A stretch of DNA of 64,000 bases from Tenrec ecaudatus. Lineage: Eukaryota; Chordata; Mammalia; Afrosoricida; Tenrecidae. Under the pieces are notes generated by a model, which worked only from the letters and a program-made list of their open reading frames with translations, had not been told where the DNA came from and ran no database searches. Position numbers and translations under genes: made by a program. Where the stretch lies: positions 8,614,497-8,678,496 of the forward strand of contig NC_134542.1 in assembly GCF_050624435.1 (NCBI RefSeq), written 5' to 3'. This document shows, one piece after another, positions 780 to 50,142 of the stretch (position 1 is its first letter; every line of letters starts with the position of its first letter).

Positions 780-942
780 GATGTCCATGGAAGACCAGGG
801 CCTGGAGGATGGATTATTCTATAAGGCTATGGTTAGTCACTACAGAAAGTTAAAGGTGGAGCTCTCCCACGCAATAAATAAGACATTTCCTTTCCTCACG
901 ACCCTCCGAGACCGTGGCTTCATCAGCAATAAGCTGTTTACA
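780..942 (+). CDS. SP100: SP100-family exon: first half of the HSR domain
   Basis: The acceptor is TTCTCCCAG at 771-779 and the donor is GTGAGT at 943. The 163 bases supply the last base of a split Arg codon, then MSMEDQGLEDGLF... through NKLFT. Known SP100 reads MFTEDQGVDD...NKMFE here, with the shared core INKTFPFL..LRDRGFIS (KKTFPFL..LRDRDLI in human SP100). The frame is fully open. The Arg/Met split codon matches the known family exon border, which supports the start. An open frame running through it from an upstream ATG at 700 is only intron read-through. Confidence 0.9.
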
Positions 943-1365
943 GTGAGTGATGTTTCTAACCCAGCCCAGCTTAACGGGGCGTCACCCGCCCCTAGTCCAG
1001 CTCCAAACATCAGAGTGCATCTAGCTGAGCTTGGTGCCACCAATGAGCGGGAAAACTCTTCTATTAATTCTCTGAATATTCCAACCAGGTAAAAGGCAGA
1101 CATCCCCAGCTCTGTTCCTGCTTCTTCTCACTGCAGGAACCAACTTCCGTGTCCCCGACTGGTCTCAGTCAGGGCCCTGGGGGAGTGACCTAGAGGAGGA
1201 CACAGGCTGGGTCCGACACACATGTGTGCCATACAGATGTCATGTCTCGTGGGAATTCACACAATGAAGGATAAACTGGAAATTAAGTCAGAAATGAGAG
1301 AAATGGCCCAGAATTTCATTTTAGGAAACATCACCTTGACATACTGAGAGCTGAGAGCATCCAAC
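943..1365. other. Intron sequence, no feature seen
   Basis: This lies between two SP100-family exons. The open frames across it are intron read-through. No repeat was recognised before the SINE at 1366. Confidence 0.4.
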
Positions 1366-1545: not shown

Positions 1546-2182
1546 CAAACGCACAGGAAATTGGTGTCTTGTTATTTGGGGAGCAGGTGCTTGCTATCCC
1601 CTTGCAGACTCCTCCTCCACTGGCCTCCGTGTCCTTAGCTGTTGTACATATTCAGAGTTCTGGCGGTTGGGCACATGTTAGCAATGAACCTTGCAGGAGT
1701 GACACGTGACAAGTTCTCTCCTTGTCCGATGAGGCTGATTGTTCGAGAGCCACATTCACAGCAGGGAGGGGCTGGTCCTGCCTTCCTGGAGACTTTGTGC
1801 CCATTAGTCCTGGGAGAAGGGCAGCGTTTGTCCGGTCAACAGAATGGCCACTCACCGCCCACTAAGACTGGTCCTAAAATATCATGGCCAGATTCTCACA
1901 GGGCGACCCATCTTTTAACTGGAAACCCAATCTTTTGCTACAAAATAACTCCTTCCCATCATTAATATAAGTGAGATGAAATTACGTTCCAAAAATGAGC
2001 TGTTTGTTTTTTTTTAAGAAGGGAGGACTTACTTGTTTCATTTCTATACAGAAATCCTGCATTGTCCCATCACAAGACCCCTTTTCTTACAGACTAGATT
2101 ATCTACATTTACTTCCAGGGGTCCTTTGGTAATTTTGGAGGCCTGTGTTTATATTTTCTCCCACCACTGTTTTGTTTGTAAG

Positions 2183-2348
2183 GATTCTGAAGAGTCTTGT
2201 AGAAACCTAGTCTCTGTACAAAAGGTGGTGCACAAGGTCCTCAATATCAAAGAGGACTTTTGACCTGCCACTTCTGAAAGCGCTGTTCAGTGAGGTCAGC
2301 TTGATGGAACCCCCGACCTCATTGATACCCACAGTAGCTTCACATCGG
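2183..2348 (+). CDS. SP100: SP100-family exon: second half of the HSR domain, frame disrupted
   Basis: The acceptor is TTTGTTTGTAAG ending at 2182 and the donor GTAATT starts at 2349. The exon opens DSEESCRNLVSVQKVVHKVL, which matches SP100 [20 protein letters not shown]. At about 2255-2263 two bases are missing relative to the family, giving TGA at 2261. The homologous reading continues in another frame as FDLPLLKALFSEVSLME. One more base is missing in the C-run at 2309-2313, after which PDLID returns in the original frame. The exon is 166 bases, against about 169 expected, so the two deletions compensate, but the stop remains. This is either a genuine lesion or an assembly error. Confidence 0.85.
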
Positions 2349-13528: not shown

Positions 13529-14770
13529 TGGAAGCAAGTTTGAGGTGGCAACAGGAAACAAATTATTTCACTGAAACTTACGTGTGCTGTTTCTTTATTT
13601 GGAATAGTCGTTCTTGAACGGGCCAAGATGCAATTTGAAAAACAGGAATCATCACTGTGGGTATTCTATTTTATTAGTTTTTTAAAATTAGTGTAATTAT
13701 CTTATTTTAATTGCAGCAAAAATAGACACAATGAAACCCTCTCCAATTCATCAACTTCTGCATGTATAATTGAGTGCCATTGATGACACGCTTCGTGTTG
13801 CACACGGTCTTTGTCCACATTGTTCCACCACAAACATAAAGCCAAAACCCTCTGAGCAGCAACTCGTCCTCCTGCACCCATGGCAACCATTGGTCAACTT
13901 GGCTTCTTATTATTATTAATATGGAACGCCTCATGGATTTGTGTGTGATCCTTGCTCAGGGCCATGCTAATCTCTGTATTGCTCCAGTATTAGTGTGTGC
14001 GCTGACAGAGCAAGAACTCGCTGTTGGTATTTTAAACATACTGATTGTGGTAAGGATTGTACAACTCTTCTTGATACGATTGAACTATTGATTTGTATGG
14101 TATGTGGGTTGTGTGCCAATAAAACTTTTTGAAAAAGACTTAGAATGGCAATTTGATACTTTCAAAGCCAAAGTATCATTTTTTAAAGTAAAAAGTTTCA
14201 TCCCATTCAGGAAGATGTGGCATCAACTTCAAGAAGTCCAACATGACCTTCAGTGAAAGGGAGTATGTGTCTTCCCTGGGTTCCCAGGTGTCAGTCTGCT
14301 TCTGCAGAATCAAATGGAATCATGAGTTCCCTGTGTTTTCCTCAAGTGAATTTAGGGAAGGCAAGTACCGATCCTCTCTGGTCTGCCAGATCATTTGGGG
14401 TTTGAGAGTTTGGACGTGGGCGGTGGCTAAAATTTGTGTTTAAAGTGATCATTCATGACACAAGCAATAATCACGGCCAGGATGTGGAAATCCTTTGCTT
14501 CTGTTGTCGGTTGATAGCAAGTCAGCTGGGATTAATAACGATTCCACGTCGAGAACGGAATGCTGCCCAGTCCTGCACGCTCTCTTGGATGTGTTTGATC
14601 TCTGATATGTGCGAGCCCATTGTTAATGTGACTTAGTGGAAGCAGGGATGTCTAAGAATTGGCAGATGTATTTTAAAACCACCACGCCATGTGGTTAGCA
14701 TTGCCAGTAGACACAGGTGACTTCCGGAGGGACGCCTTTAGGAGCTGCTGTGGAATGTTCCATATTCTTG
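13529..14770. other. AT-rich sequence with an L1 3'-end piece
   Basis: At 13995-14135 there is an L1-type 3' end: TGATTGTGGTAAGGATTGTA, then GTATGGTATGTGGGTTGTG, then CCAATAAAACTTTTTG. The rest shows nothing I can name. Confidence 0.5.
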
Positions 14771-17727: not shown

Positions 17728-17806
17728 AACTCACGGGTGGGTTTGAACCACTGACCTTAGGGTTAGCAGCCTAACACATTACCCAATATGCCACCAGAGA
17801 ACACCC
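17728..17806 (-). mobile_element. AfroSINE fragment
   Basis: TTTGAACCACTGACCTTAGG, then a block ending ATGCCACCAGAGAACACC: the reversed tRNA-like head only. It abuts arm A of the inverted duplication. Confidence 0.8.
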
Positions 17807-32491: not shown

Positions 32492-32501
32492 CTCCTACCT
32501 G
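32492..32501 (-). other. Donor-like site overlapping the receptor stop codon
   Basis: The last codons read ATC AGG TAG followed by GAGC. CAG/GTAGGA here matches a splice donor, with the TAG inside the intron side. If it is used, the reading frame would continue in another exon. Confidence 0.45.
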
Positions 32502-33454
32502 ATGCGTCCACTCGGACTAGAGTTTCTGACTCGCAGAGCCGGTGTATCGGTTTCAATGGGCGCTCTGCTGTTGACCATGTGATCACAGCACAGCCAGTGC
32601 CATAGCCTGCTCTGCAGTTCTCGGTTCTGGAGTCCATAGATCAGAGGGTTAAAGCACTGGGCCATTGAAAAGATGGCAAACAGCACCATATTTAAAGCAA
32701 AGTAAAAGGCCCCGCACCTCTTCCCCAAGCCTATGATCACCAGGGTTGGCACGACATGTAGGGCCATCTGCAGTAGGTGAGTAAGAACTGTTTTCCTGGC
32801 TTTGACATTCGACCTATTAAAATGCCCGGCCCTTTTCCCTTCGTGGTAAATCAGAGAGTAGCTGATAAGGATGACAGACAGGGGAAGGCAAAAGAAAACC
32901 GTACCAATGACTCTGAACGTTGTGCTGTTCAAGGTCACAGGGCAAATGGGCTGGGATTTCAGAATGGCCACTGGAGAATGGCTCGTGCCCTCTATGAGAT
33001 AGAAGCTAACATTCTTGAGGATGATGACGGTCCACATCCCAGCTAGGATCTTGTACTTAACTGAATCCACCAGGACCAGCGATCTCAAAGGCCAGCAAAT
33101 CGCCAGGTAAGTGTTGAGAGTCATCAAGGCCAAGGTGAAGAGAATCCCTTCCCCAACACTTAGCTGGATGCCGAACACCACCCAGCAGATCAGCAGAGGG
33201 CTGTTGGCCTGCAGCGCCCGCATCCCCTGGAACACAATGCCCAGGCCGCAGTAGGAGGAGATGCACAGGAGATGGTGGCAGAGGAGAATGTACCGGATCT
33301 CACTCTGCAGTTTCCGATCCTGCACCACGATGGCCATGATGATGGCCGTGGTGGACGTGGCGAAGGAAAAAGCCACCATGAACACAGAGGCCTTCACCGT
33401 GGCTTCCAGCCTCAGCCAGTCGGAGATGTTGCAGGGCTCTGACGAGGCATTCAT
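32495..33454 (-). CDS. Seven-transmembrane receptor, OR131-2/GPR148-like (possible Csprs relative)
   Basis: This intact 319-residue class-A-like GPCR is the only clean gene in the window. Predicted helices lie at about residues 22-45, 54-77, 86-118, 133-154, 179-203, 220-242 and 249-274. Cys90 at the top of TM3 and Cys171 in the second outer loop can form the usual disulphide. Asn2, Asn9 and Asn176 are possible glycosylation sites. TM7 has NPLIY (269-273), and Cys289-Cys290 could be palmitoylated. TM1 lacks the usual GN motif, TM2 lacks the conserved Asp, and DRY is replaced by NTYLAICWPLR (114-124), close to HTYLAVIHPLR of GPR148. The start is supported by an in-frame TAA 12 bases upstream and A at -3. 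Ligand and coupling are unknown. It may belong with the mouse Csprs gene near Sp100, but I could not check this. Confidence 0.9.
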   Translation of the reverse strand: MNASSEPCNISDWLRLEATVKASVFMVAFSFATSTTAIIMAIVVQDRKLQSEIRYILLCHHLLCISSYCGLGIVFQGMRALQANSPLLICWVVFGIQLSVGEGILFTLALMTLNTYLAICWPLRSLVLVDSVKYKILAGMWTVIILKNVSFYLIEGTSHSPVAILKSQPICPVTLNSTTFRVIGTVFFCLPLSVILISYSLIYHEGKRAGHFNRSNVKARKTVLTHLLQMALHVVPTLVIIGLGKRCGAFYFALNMVLFAIFSMAQCFNPLIYGLQNRELQSRLWHWLCCDHMVNSRAPIETDTPALRVRNSSPSGRIR

Positions 33455-33490
33455 CCTCTTCAGTTATCCCGGCTCCTGGGGGAGGAAAGA
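33455..33490 (-). promoter_or_regulatory. Splice acceptor and short 5' leader of the receptor exon
   Basis: On the - strand CCTTATTCTTTCCTCCCCCAG ends at 33476, a good acceptor. The exon would begin at 33475, leaving 21 bases of leader with an in-frame TAA before the ATG. This predicts an upstream non-coding exon. I could not place that exon or a promoter. Confidence 0.6.
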
Positions 33491-34139
33491 ATAAGGGAGA
33501 GTGAGGCCGTGCTCTAGCTGCTGATGTGTTTTGCCAGCTCTCTTGGTGAGGGATTTCAAAATCGAGCCCCTGGAACAGTCTCTGGGTTTCCATATAATGG
33601 TTGACACTGGTCAGTGTAATTGATGTGGATAAAAGGCCTGGAGATATTGCCAGAGGTCTTCTCTTTGACTGGGGGCGGGGGTTGTGAAGAGAGATCCCCC
33701 CACCCCTCAAATCATCTACTAGGAAGATCTGAAAGATGGTATTCTGGGTCCTCAGCAAAGAGCTCAAAACCAGGTCAATTTTCTGCTTCTGTGTCCTTTC
33801 CCATCTCTGGCTGTGGCCGCCTCTTGCAATCTAGAGTGTGAAACACCACATCCGGAGAGGCAACGATTGACCACTGGGCACTGTTGGCACTGAGTACGCT
33901 CTAAGGTCTGGAAAGGAAGTTGGCGCAAGAGCCAAGAGGAAGGCCAAGAATTAGGAAGCATTGAGGTCCTTGACGCAGAGAGCTGAACCCTTGGTGTCAG
34001 AGAGTTTTAGAAGGTGATCGACAGTCATGCTGGTGATCAGGACAGACACTTACAAGGACCTGCTCTGGGTCCCAACTGTTCCTAAAGTAGATTCCTCCCT
34101 CCCCTGGGGCATGCTTGCTGCTCCACTAGATGGTCTGAT
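33491..34139. other. Upstream region of the receptor gene
   Basis: Unique sequence. No CpG island or TATA-like signal was evident. A non-coding first exon of the receptor may lie here or further right. Confidence 0.35.
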
Positions 34140-42159: not shown

Positions 42160-43405
42160 TACATAAGGGGGTACCCCCCCCAAAAAAAAAAACAGAATTG
42201 TGCGGGACAGAAGAGAGCTTTCACAGTACACATTTTTGCTGCTAGACAAGCATTGGGCAACTCATTCTGAGTCAGCGCACCCAGTGGCATCACCAGGGAG
42301 TGTTCTCTTTGGTCACAGTGGATTTTTTTGTGAAAGCAGTTTTGCTCAAGCCTCGTTTTTGATGATGCCTGATTTAAGGGAACAGAGTGTAGCTGTGAAA
42401 TTTTGGGAAAAAATGCTGCAGAAACTGTTTTCATGACGAACACAGCTCACGAGGACAGGGATATGGGAAAACTTAAGTGTACGCGTGGCTTTCTCCTCTC
42501 AAAACAGGTGAAATGTTGAGTGATGACAAACCTAGTTCTGGACGTCCATCAACTTCCCAAACGGATAAAAATGTCGCATTTGGAGTTTGCTCCACTGTTG
42601 AAGGCCATTAAGACTCAGCCTTGAAACGGCTGAGAAGTCTCATGACCTAAGTGTTTGCTGATTTCTTCTGTGACTTTACGCTTTGAACAGACTGTCAAGG
42701 ACAAGAAAGCAAGCAAGGTCTGGGAAAAACAGGTGGTTTAATTTTCTCAAGGCTGTCTGGCTTGGCAGAAGATAGAGTTGCTATGTGTATCAAATGTGCC
42801 TGCTGAACAATGAGATTATTAACCCCGGGTGGTTTCTGCATGGATATAAGGAGTGTGTGGAATAAACTCCCGTGCTTCAGTCCATCAGACTGCTGCCCTC
42901 CCAAGACTTTCTGTCTCTCTTTATTTCCTCAATCCTCGCTCCCCCTTTCAGGACTGTTCCACTCGTCGGCTGGCTCCGACACTCCACCAGGTCAGACTGT
43001 TAATCAAGCTTTCTATTTAGAGGTTCTGGAAAGAATGTGGCACAGTGTGCAACACCAAAGGCCTGGTTTGTGGCGGATGGAGGACTGGTTTTGCCACCAC
43101 AACAATGCACCTGCTCACACAGCCATCTCAGCACAGCAGTGTTTGGCAAAAACAGCACGCACCTTACTCATCTGACCTCACTCTGCAACTTCCCTTTGTT
43201 TCTTCAGATGAGAATGAAGAGGGGGATGAAAGGACAGTGATGTGATGACATAGAACAGGTGAAGGAAAAATAAGGGAGCCATTCTGTCAGCCGCCCAAAT
43301 AGATGAGTTTGAAAAATGTTTCCAAGAATAGAATAGCAGATTTGACAAATTTAGTAAGTGTAACAGAAAGTACTTTGAAGGTGATAAAATTGTTTCATAA
43401 TATGA
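42160..43405 (+). mobile_element. Mariner DNA transposon, degraded
   Basis: The left terminus CATAAGGGGGTACCCCCCCC mirrors the terminus of the copy at 10.34 kb. Transposase pieces read in order: GEMLSDDKPSSGRPSTSQTD near 42510 (helix-turn-helix linker block), then GQTVNQAFYLEVLERM and NNAPAHTAISAQQCLAK near 43000-43150 (catalytic region), then a C-terminal AAQIDEFEKCFQE-like part. About 300 bases of the middle are lost or replaced near 42640-42960. Many frame breaks make it inactive. Confidence 0.88.
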
Positions 43406-48625: not shown

Positions 48626-50142
48626 CCTTGACTGCACTCAGCAACTAATTGTTGGGCCATATGTGAACAACTGGTCTTCAGTGTGGATGAAGTGCTCATA
48701 AAACGGTTGAAAACAACAACCCCTGCTCTTTAGGGGTGAGTGGAACGCGGCCTTAGTCTCAAAAACCAAACATTCTTCATTGATTTCAGGATGCAGGTGA
48801 GAACGGCCAGGAGGTAGCCTCTGACCCAGGAGGTAAAAGTATAGAACAATTTCACATTTTTAGGTAGAAGAAAACCCTGCACAAAACCCACAAGACCTTT
48901 ATCACTGGTCTCTGGCCAACTCTGCCTCAGGTGAGTATCGCCCTCGCGGCCTGATGGCAAGTGCGTTTGCACTTAGTCTTGACTTGCTGGATTGTACCTG
49001 CTGCAGAGAGCCCCGCCTCCTGGCGGCCCCACGGGCAAGAGAGCAGAACACTGCTGGGCCCTGGACTGTCCCCCCAATGGGTTGTGGATCAGACTGTTGG
49101 GATCCATAGGTCTTCATGAACTTCCTGGATCCCTGGTCTCAGAACACTGAAGTTTGTTTGTTTTTATTTCTATTTATTTATTTTCTTATGTGCCCTAGGC
49201 ATGAAACAGCTCTGGCCACAATCTAGGCATCAAGCTAGGATGAACAAAGGGCTGCCAGTCTGCTCTGCCCCTGACTGATATAAGAGCACCACCACCAATC
49301 AGGTGTCTCTTTGCCCACAGCCAGGGGTTTGTTTGTTTGTTTGTTTTTTATCAGCCTCTGATTACTGATTGACTATTGATCACTGAATGCTTTTCAGATG
49401 AGGCAGGACTGGGGATGGGAGGGCAGGTCACATGAGGTCATTCACTCTTCCAGAGTGGTGAGAACGAAGCCAGTTTAACCCCCCCCTCACGGTAGTGGGA
49501 GTTCAGACAGCAAAGGCACCCGTTTATGGGGGAAGGGCAGCCTCTGGGGAAGCCCACCGGCCAACAGGGAGTGGGAACCAGACCAGGGACTGAGCTTCTA
49601 GGACAAGAGGTGTAAGAACCCACATAAACGCCCAGAGGAGCCCTGCTGAAACGACAGCGCTGGCCCCGGGACTTGGAGACGGGTTTTTGGAAGGAGATTA
49701 AGGTGCCTCCTTGTGTAAAATCAAGGGGTGACCCCGGAAATGTACTTCTTGGGAACCACTCGGCACATTTGTAGATTCAACAGAGAGGGTTTGGGGACAA
49801 CATTTGCAAATAGAAGCTTCCTGAGGAATAAGGTACATCAAGGCGGGTGAGCTGACGACTGTACCATTGACACAGAGCATTGCTTCAAATGCTCTGATCC
49901 ACCTGACAAGGACCAGGAAACCTCGGGGCCACCTTATTTCCTGGTTCACAAGCCTTCTGACTGACAGGTGCTGTCTCACTTCTTAGCCACTGCTCTCTAG
50001 TAGTGGACATGATTTGCCGTTTCCTTCTCTGGTAAGGTGTCCACCTTATGCAGATTCCAGCTTGTGTGGGAGCTGCTATCCATCCCAAAGGCTGCTCAAG
50101 ACTAACGAGACTGCCCCGATTTTATCATTGCAGGCCATGAGC
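48626..50142. other. Unique sequence
   Basis: Contains (GTTT)n runs at 49155 and 49327, and GC-rich short frames near 48900-49110. No gene or known repeat was recognised. Confidence 0.3.

What the first reader, a model, noticed from the sequence alone, without database searches (positions are those of the whole stretch)
32495..33454. Intact orphan GPCR in a repeat desert near SP100
A full 319-codon seven-helix receptor with no lesions survives where almost everything else is transposon debris, so it has probably been under selection. It lacks the TM1 GN motif, the TM2 Asp and DRY, which is unusual for class A. Its nearest relatives by eye are fish odorant receptor 131-2 and GPR148. Sequence shows the frame and motifs; the family placement is from memory.
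Basis: partly seen in the sequence, partly recalled or inferred. Interest (0 to 1): 0.8.

Follow-up and report, generated by a model that had tools for sequence, protein, structure and literature searches.

The report
Intact Csprs-like OR-kappa receptor gene
The window holds a complete, undamaged gene for a seven-helix receptor beside a cluster of SP100-type immune genes; it is most likely this mammal's copy of a known, ancient receptor (called OR-kappa, or Csprs in mice) that is active in immune cells and that humans have lost.

Summary
In detail: the minus strand (33454 to 32495) encodes an unbroken 319-residue class A receptor (Pfam 7tm_1, E 1.7e-11), found once in this 3.9-Gb genome, with a 3' splice site 21 bases before its ATG. 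TM1 GN, TM2 Asp and DRY are indeed missing (DRY is N114-T115-Y116). It is not an unplaced orphan: it lies at the outer edge of an SP100-type gene cluster, as mouse Csprs flanks the Sp100-rs/Sp110 array, and a 2026 paper lists mouse Csprs as OR-kappa, an ancient Type 2 'olfactory receptor' expressed in immune and endothelial cells and lost in human. Sequence agrees: OR-type motifs, but outside the conventional ORs of its own genome and no Pfam 7tm_4 match. Fish OR131-2 and GPR148 (both recalled) are no closer than ordinary ORs, 23-29% identity. I could fetch no OR-kappa sequence from another species, so orthology rests on position and motifs, and dN/dS could not be run. The neighbouring SP100-like copy is frameshifted; the receptor is not. 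New member of a known kind; modest interest.

The parts
32495..33454 (-). Single coding exon, 319 codons plus stop, class A seven-helix receptor (Csprs / OR-kappa-like)
   Evidence: Open frame; Pfam 7tm_1 E 1.7e-11; one copy found in own genome at G000:C102:8646994-8647950; coding composition
33455..33498 (-). 5' UTR stub of 21 bases with in-frame TAA (33455-33475), preceded by a 3' splice site: CAG at 33476-33478 after 19 pyrimidines of 20
   Evidence: Sequence, count. Implies at least one upstream non-coding exon, which I did not locate
820..948 (+). First-half HSR-domain exon of an SP-family gene, open
   Evidence: Pfam HSR E 3.6e-13; genome hit E 3.0e-9
2174..2347 (+). Second-half HSR exon of the same copy, frameshifted; no SAND match downstream of it on the contig
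   Evidence: tblastn of paralogous exons splits over two frames, three-frame reading, SAND map

Best explanation
The ORF is the coding exon of this mammal's single-copy orthologue of mouse Csprs, that is, the clade C OR-kappa gene, a Type 2 member of the olfactory-receptor superfamily that is not an olfactory gene. Shown here: an intact seven-helix frame, a 3' splice site before the ATG, one copy found, OR-type motifs without membership of the conventional OR families, and a position at the outer edge of the SP-family cluster. From papers on mouse and zebrafish: expression in immune cells (and, in mouse, endothelial cells), and interferon-lambda induction of Csprs in a mouse intestinal epithelial line. 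Inferred: the protein sits in the plasma membrane of immune or endothelial cells, is raised during interferon responses with its SP neighbours, and senses an unknown internal ligand. Having Thr where class A receptors have the Arg of DRY, and lacking the TM2 Asp, it should couple to G proteins atypically, weakly or with altered basal activity, or act by another route.
For: Position: 14 of the 16 HSR matches in the genome run along C102:8228388-8615444, Mo25 (CAB39-type) exons lie beyond the low end at 8094916-8108102 (5 of 13 Mo25 matches), and the receptor at 8646994 is just outside the high end, about 30 kb from the last HSR exon piece. In mouse the Sp100-rs/Sp110 array is flanked by single-copy Sp100 and Csprs at its two ends, and Sp100-rs is a fusion of Sp100 exons 1-3 with the Csprs exon, which needs a splice acceptor at that exon (PMC13042054, passages); the window exon has one. 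Mouse Csprs is OR-kappa8; OR-kappa clade C is kept in amphibians, reptiles and mammals, with stable copy numbers and isolated from OR clusters (PMC13113109, Results, Discussion and Methods). Motifs: [KR]AxxTxxxH of TM6 is in the window protein, in 29 of 37 own-genome ORs and 0 of 7 aminergic-type receptors; MxxxxYxAIC in 22 of 37 and 0 of 7; NPx[IV]YxLxNxE in 5 of 37 and 0 of 7. No 7tm_4 match where 4 of 4 OR controls match. Four trees put it outside the conventional ORs. None of the other 20 own-genome matches to the protein lies on C102.
Against: No OR-kappa or Csprs protein from any other species was compared, so orthology is by position and motif. The trees join long branches, and support for the split from the conventional ORs is only 74/96 when the window protein is the only long row; the non-OR controls are 7 aminergic-type receptors only (kind by eye). 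Of the mouse Csprs primers printed in PMC5650613, the reverse primer has 7 sites of at least 14 of 20 in the window, none in the receptor exon; for the forward primer only the best 8 sites were listed, none in the exon. Only an 8-base stretch, CAGGAGCC, is shared with the acceptor, noted after the fact. No interferon-response element stands out: 4 GAAANNGAAA sites in 64 kb, none within 4 kb of the coding exon. The WWE search found no TRIP12-like match on this contig, so the receptor-side neighbour is not anchored. In mouse, Csprs was not induced by interferon-lambda in dendritic cells or in unpolarised epithelial cells.
Confidence: 0.82

Rival explanations
1. A recently inactivated OR-kappa gene: the frame is still open because loss was recent or regulatory (promoter or upstream exon gone), as the gene was lost in human, opossum, platypus and chicken.
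For: Losses are repeated in other lineages (PMC13113109). A neutral frame of this size has a half-life of about 2-4 My under rates that I assumed, so an intact frame does not exclude a loss within a few My. The adjacent SP copy is broken. I found no promoter or upstream exon, but made no systematic search for one.
Against: No lesion in the frame; strong third-position and second-position composition signal; intact splice acceptor.
Confidence: 0.12
2. A GPR148-like receptor: the two share Thr in place of the DRY Arg and the TM6 A-x-x-T-x-x-x-H motif, so this could be the lineage's GPR148 counterpart.
For: Recalled human GPR148 aligns over 270 residues at 23% with 46.2 bits; Smith-Waterman score 140 against 41.7 +/- 7.3 for 1000 window-shuffled versions (the recalled OR131-2 gives 115 against 41.5 +/- 7.0); both have xTYLA in TM3. 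In a direct tblastn the probe does find the window gene, at 40.0 bits, or 45.8 without low-complexity filtering.
Against: Two own-genome ORs score 47.8 and 47.0 bits. The GPR148 probe in the own genome has a better match elsewhere (49.8 bits, aminergic-type by eye) and the window gene is not among its 13 listed matches (117 of 277 candidates were scored, so the gene may have been missed by the first look). Recalled GPR148 lacks MxxxxYxAIC and NPx[IV]YxLxNxE, which the window protein has. The GPR148 sequence is from memory.
Confidence: 0.04
3. A divergent conventional (Type 1) olfactory receptor stranded outside the OR clusters.
For: The best blastp matches among 44 own-genome receptor frames are ORs, up to 47.8 bits; OR-type motifs. 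(Not all 21 matches are ORs: C22:190366674 scores 236 bits with 7tm_1 and looks like another class A receptor.)
Against: No Pfam 7tm_4 match at E up to 1, whereas 4 of 4 own ORs tested score 155-186 bits with 7tm_4, above their 7tm_1 scores; four trees place it outside the Type 1 ORs; DRY is missing.
Confidence: 0.02

Closest known systems
Mouse Csprs (component of Sp100-rs; OR-kappa8) and the other mouse OR-kappa genes Gm7582, Gm7609, Gm2666, Gm7592
   Same: Receptor gene at the edge of an SP100/SP110-type cluster; coding exon with a splice acceptor (inferred for mouse from the Sp100-rs fusion); OR-superfamily receptor.
   Different: One copy found here, several in mouse; the nearest SP copy here is a broken one on the other strand. 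Proteins not compared (none could be fetched).
OR-kappa clade C of vertebrates (the tree of PMC13113109 has 85 OR-kappa genes of 58 species, 27 of them mammals)
   Same: Type 2-like: OR motifs but outside conventional ORs; one copy; no OR neighbour found on its contig in the capped searches.
   Different: Not tested against the published set; DRY Arg is replaced by Thr here, and the main text of that paper does not mention DRY.
Fish odorant receptor 131-2-like (OR-eta by recall) and human GPR148
   Same: TM6 A-x-x-T-x-x-x-H; GPR148 also has Thr for the DRY Arg.
   Different: 23-27% identity only; no closer than ordinary ORs. Both sequences recalled, not fetched.

Membership tests
OR-kappa / Csprs | Groups with OR-kappa sequences in a tree | not testable with these tools
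   No OR-kappa sequence held; viral scan gave no relative
OR-kappa / Csprs | OR superfamily but outside Type 1 ORs | tested here: met
   Motif counts, no 7tm_4 match, four trees; support for the split 100/99, 92/98, 96/100 and 74/96, with long branches
OR-kappa / Csprs | Stable, single or few copies, no birth-and-death expansion | tested here: met
   One copy found in the own genome; the other 20 matches are at most 32% identical (125 of 333 candidates scored)
OR-kappa / Csprs | Isolated from OR clusters (over 2.3 Mb) | tested here: inconclusive
   The other 20 matches to the protein are not on C102. The 7tm_4 search scored 138 of 2576 candidates and all 138 are from contig C41, so it says little. 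Of 147 scored 7tm_1 matches (of 3038 candidates), 7 are on C102, kind untested, the nearest 4.6 Mb away
OR-kappa / Csprs | At the edge of the SP100/SP110 cluster, as mouse Csprs | tested here: met
   against PMC13042054 (passages)
OR-kappa / Csprs | Coding exon joined by splicing to an upstream exon | tested here: inconclusive
   Strong acceptor present by pyrimidine count; upstream exon not found, no RNA data
OR-kappa / Csprs | Expression in immune or endothelial cells; interferon induction | not testable with these tools
   No RNA data; reported for mouse and zebrafish
GPR148 | Best match of GPR148 in this genome | tested here: not met
   Recalled GPR148 has a better match elsewhere, 49.8 bits, than the window gene, 40.0-45.8 bits
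Conventional (Type 1) olfactory receptor | Pfam 7tm_4 match above the cut-off | tested here: not met
   No match at E up to 1; 4 of 4 OR controls match
Class A (rhodopsin-like) GPCR | Pfam 7tm_1 above cut-off, NPxxY, TM3-ECL2 cysteines | tested here: met
   C90 and C171 aligned

The most novel reading that the evidence does not exclude
The pairing of an OR-kappa receptor with the SP100/SP110 cluster goes back at least to the placental ancestor, so the parts from which mouse Sp100-rs was fused were in place before the rodent array arose; and this receptor, without DRY Arg and TM2 Asp, signals in an atypical way as an interferon-linked internal chemosensor. The linkage part assumes that the genome is afrotherian, which I did not establish.
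Probability: 0.3. Interest if true: 0.5.

Novelty: new member of a known kind. Interest (0 to 1): 0.32.

Why it matters
OR-kappa is a vertebrate-wide, immune-expressed receptor whose function is described as unclear (PMC13113109), lost in human. An intact, apparently single-copy version beside the SP cluster in another mammal offers a simpler locus than the rearranged mouse array in which to study its regulation and its link to the SP100/SP110 region, where a preprint reports a selfish toxin-antidote element in mouse (PMC13042054). It also gives a receptor sequence with an unusual TM3 motif for coupling tests.

Tried and rejected
Relatives outside the own genome: a viral-contig scan matched 9 stretches, none of them a relative; I did not use the genome-contig scan. 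Structure: AlphaFold2 on the single sequence gave pLDDT 40.8, useless, so no fold search was made. Interferon elements: consensus counts only, no shuffles; 4 GAAANNGAAA sites against about 2 by uniform-base arithmetic, none close to the gene. Synteny on the receptor side through TRIP12 (WWE): no match on C102 among 11; the HECT search did not complete. Mouse Csprs primers of PMC5650613: no good site in the receptor exon among those listed; the shared CAGGAGCC at the acceptor is weak. Papers: no hit for 'odorant receptor 131-2' or for '131-2-like' with 'odorant receptor'; Niimura 2009 not held. Read as passages only: PMC10869828 (no 'kappa' in the main text), PMC8661438, PMC6504862 (no 'csprs'), PMC2651185, PMC7393270, PMC7759678, PMC9861207 and PMC10742943 (Csprs only as an expression marker). 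PDB: the best sequence matches are distant class A receptors and consOR2; for the recalled GPR148 probe no GPR148 entry is among the best 60 of 97. First thought rejected: GPR148 as nearest relative, from comparing its 46.2 bits with the tblastn scores of ORs (at most 36.4); with whole OR frames in blastp two ORs score slightly higher.

Full report
What is there. On the minus strand, 33454 to 32495 is an open frame of 319 codons from ATG to TAG. Length alone would not prove a gene: in 60 simulated windows the longest ORF was 180 aa on average and 347 aa at most. The Pfam match to class A receptors (7tm_1, E 1.7e-11), the third-position G+C of 70% against 45-51% in the flanks, and the 39% T at second positions do. 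An in-frame stop lies just before the ATG, the N-terminus has two glycosylation sequons, and hydropathy peaks fit seven helices. Twenty-one bases before the ATG is a CAG after 19 pyrimidines in 20, a strong 3' splice site by eye, so the gene should have an upstream non-coding exon. I did not find it.

Motifs. Against consOR2 the TM1 GN falls on T35-T36 and the TM2 Asp on S66; DRY is N114-T115-Y116. NPxxY, and the cysteines C90 and C171 that align, are kept.

Copies and kin. In the own genome (3.9 Gb, 2140 contigs) one copy was found; 20 further matches at E up to 0.001 are at most 32% identical and none lies on the same contig (125 of 333 candidates scored). In blastp against 44 own-genome receptor frames and two recalled proteins, the best are two ORs (47.8 and 47.0 bits), then recalled GPR148 (46.2), two ORs, and a recalled OR131-2-like protein (37.7); the best aminergic-type receptor among the 25 rows shown scores 25.4. 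Three OR-type motifs are present: [KR]AxxTxxxH (29 of 37 ORs, 0 of 7 non-ORs), MxxxxYxAIC (22 of 37, 0 of 7) and NPx[IV]YxLxNxE (5 of 37, 0 of 7). The 44 are the frames of at least 270 aa among 47 receptor loci; three OR loci (L007, L045, L048) fell below that length and were dropped. The labels OR and non-OR are mine: 28 of the 37 came from the 7tm_4 search, the others; the 7 non-ORs look aminergic by eye, which is a narrow control. The Pfam OR model 7tm_4 does not match the window protein at E up to 1, while 4 of 4 own ORs score 155-186 bits with it. In four trees the protein falls outside the conventional ORs; in the largest it joins the recalled OR131-2-like protein (89/81), but these and GPR148 are long branches, and with the window protein as the only long row support for the split is 74/96. 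This is what a Type 2 OR would look like; it does not prove one.

Place. HSR-domain exons, which mark SP100/SP110/SP140-type genes, occur 14 times between 8,228,388 and 8,615,444 on contig C102 and twice on contig C22 (16 matches); the SAND matches on C102 (9 of 14) end at 8,592,390. Mo25 (CAB39-type) exons lie beyond the low end at 8.09-8.11 Mb. The receptor is at 8,646,994-8,647,950, outside the high end. The nearest SP copy, at window 820-948 and 2174-2347, is frameshifted in its second HSR exon and has no SAND match after it: a damaged copy 30 kb from an undamaged receptor.

Known counterpart. PMC13042054 (passages, 12 of 25 places) says that the mouse chromosome 1 array of Sp100-rs and Sp110 is flanked by single-copy Sp100 and Csprs, that Sp100-rs joins the first three Sp100 exons to the Csprs exon, and that the region acts as a toxin-antidote element through SP100 and SP110; the passages that I saw give Csprs no part in it. 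PMC13113109 (abstract, Results, Discussion, Methods) lists Csprs as OR-kappa8 with four more mouse genes, describes OR-kappa as a Type 2 OR isolated from OR clusters, found mostly in immune cells in zebrafish and in immune and endothelial cells in mouse, present in clade C from cartilaginous fishes to mammals (27 mammals among 58 species of its tree), and lost in human, opossum, platypus and chicken. PMC8661438 (passages) notes that theta, kappa and lambda may not be OR genes and are most often single copy. PMC5650613 (passages) reports 55-fold induction of Csprs by interferon-lambda 2 (4-fold by interferon-beta) in polarised mouse intestinal epithelial cells, none in unpolarised cells or in dendritic cells, and in lung epithelial cells induction by interferon-beta only. 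PMC2651185 (passages) lists GPR148 as missing in dog and rodents.

Reading. Position at the SP-cluster edge, a coding exon with a splice acceptor, one copy, and Type 2-like sequence all fit the Csprs/OR-kappa orthologue. What is missing is a direct comparison with any OR-kappa protein. The claim of selection is supported but not proved: by my estimate a neutral frame of this size is lost with a half-life of 2.2-4.0 My (assumed rates 2.2-3.0e-9 per site per year), so an open frame speaks against an old loss but not a recent one.

Function. Reported by others in mouse and zebrafish: expression in immune and, in mouse, endothelial cells, and interferon induction in some mouse epithelia. Inferred for this animal: an internal chemosensor of immune or endothelial cells, ligand unknown, with atypical coupling because the Arg of DRY is Thr. 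I give the identification 0.82 and would put the functional inference well below that.

Species. One stretch near 32.2-32.35 kb looks like an AfroSINE to me by recall, but exact probes for recalled pieces of that element gave 6 matches for one piece and none for four others, so I treat the species as unknown.

The check changed statements, not odds: the number of dropped OR loci (three), the kind of the non-OR controls, the limits of the OR-isolation test, the primer listing, the fact that the GPR148 probe does find the gene in a direct comparison, and the cell types in which mouse Csprs was not induced.

Noticed in passing
window 49186-49329, minus: Full-length Rfam SNORA48 match, 89.6 bits; may be a retrocopy, host gene not looked for.
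   Followed up: no
window 13915-14017 and 17728-17802, minus: U6 snRNA match (58.7 bits) and a tRNA-like match with an odd anticodon; probably pseudogenes or SINE parts.
   Followed up: no
window 820-948 and 2174-2347, plus: SP-family HSR exon pair; the second exon is frameshifted and no SAND match follows on the contig.
   Followed up: partly
G000:C102:8228388-8615444: Seven first-half and seven second-half HSR matches in both orientations, more SP-family copies than the four-gene set that I recall for human.
   Followed up: no
window 42810-43175, plus: Open frame of 121 aa that looks like a mariner-type transposase piece by eye; no Pfam match at E up to 0.01.
   Followed up: no
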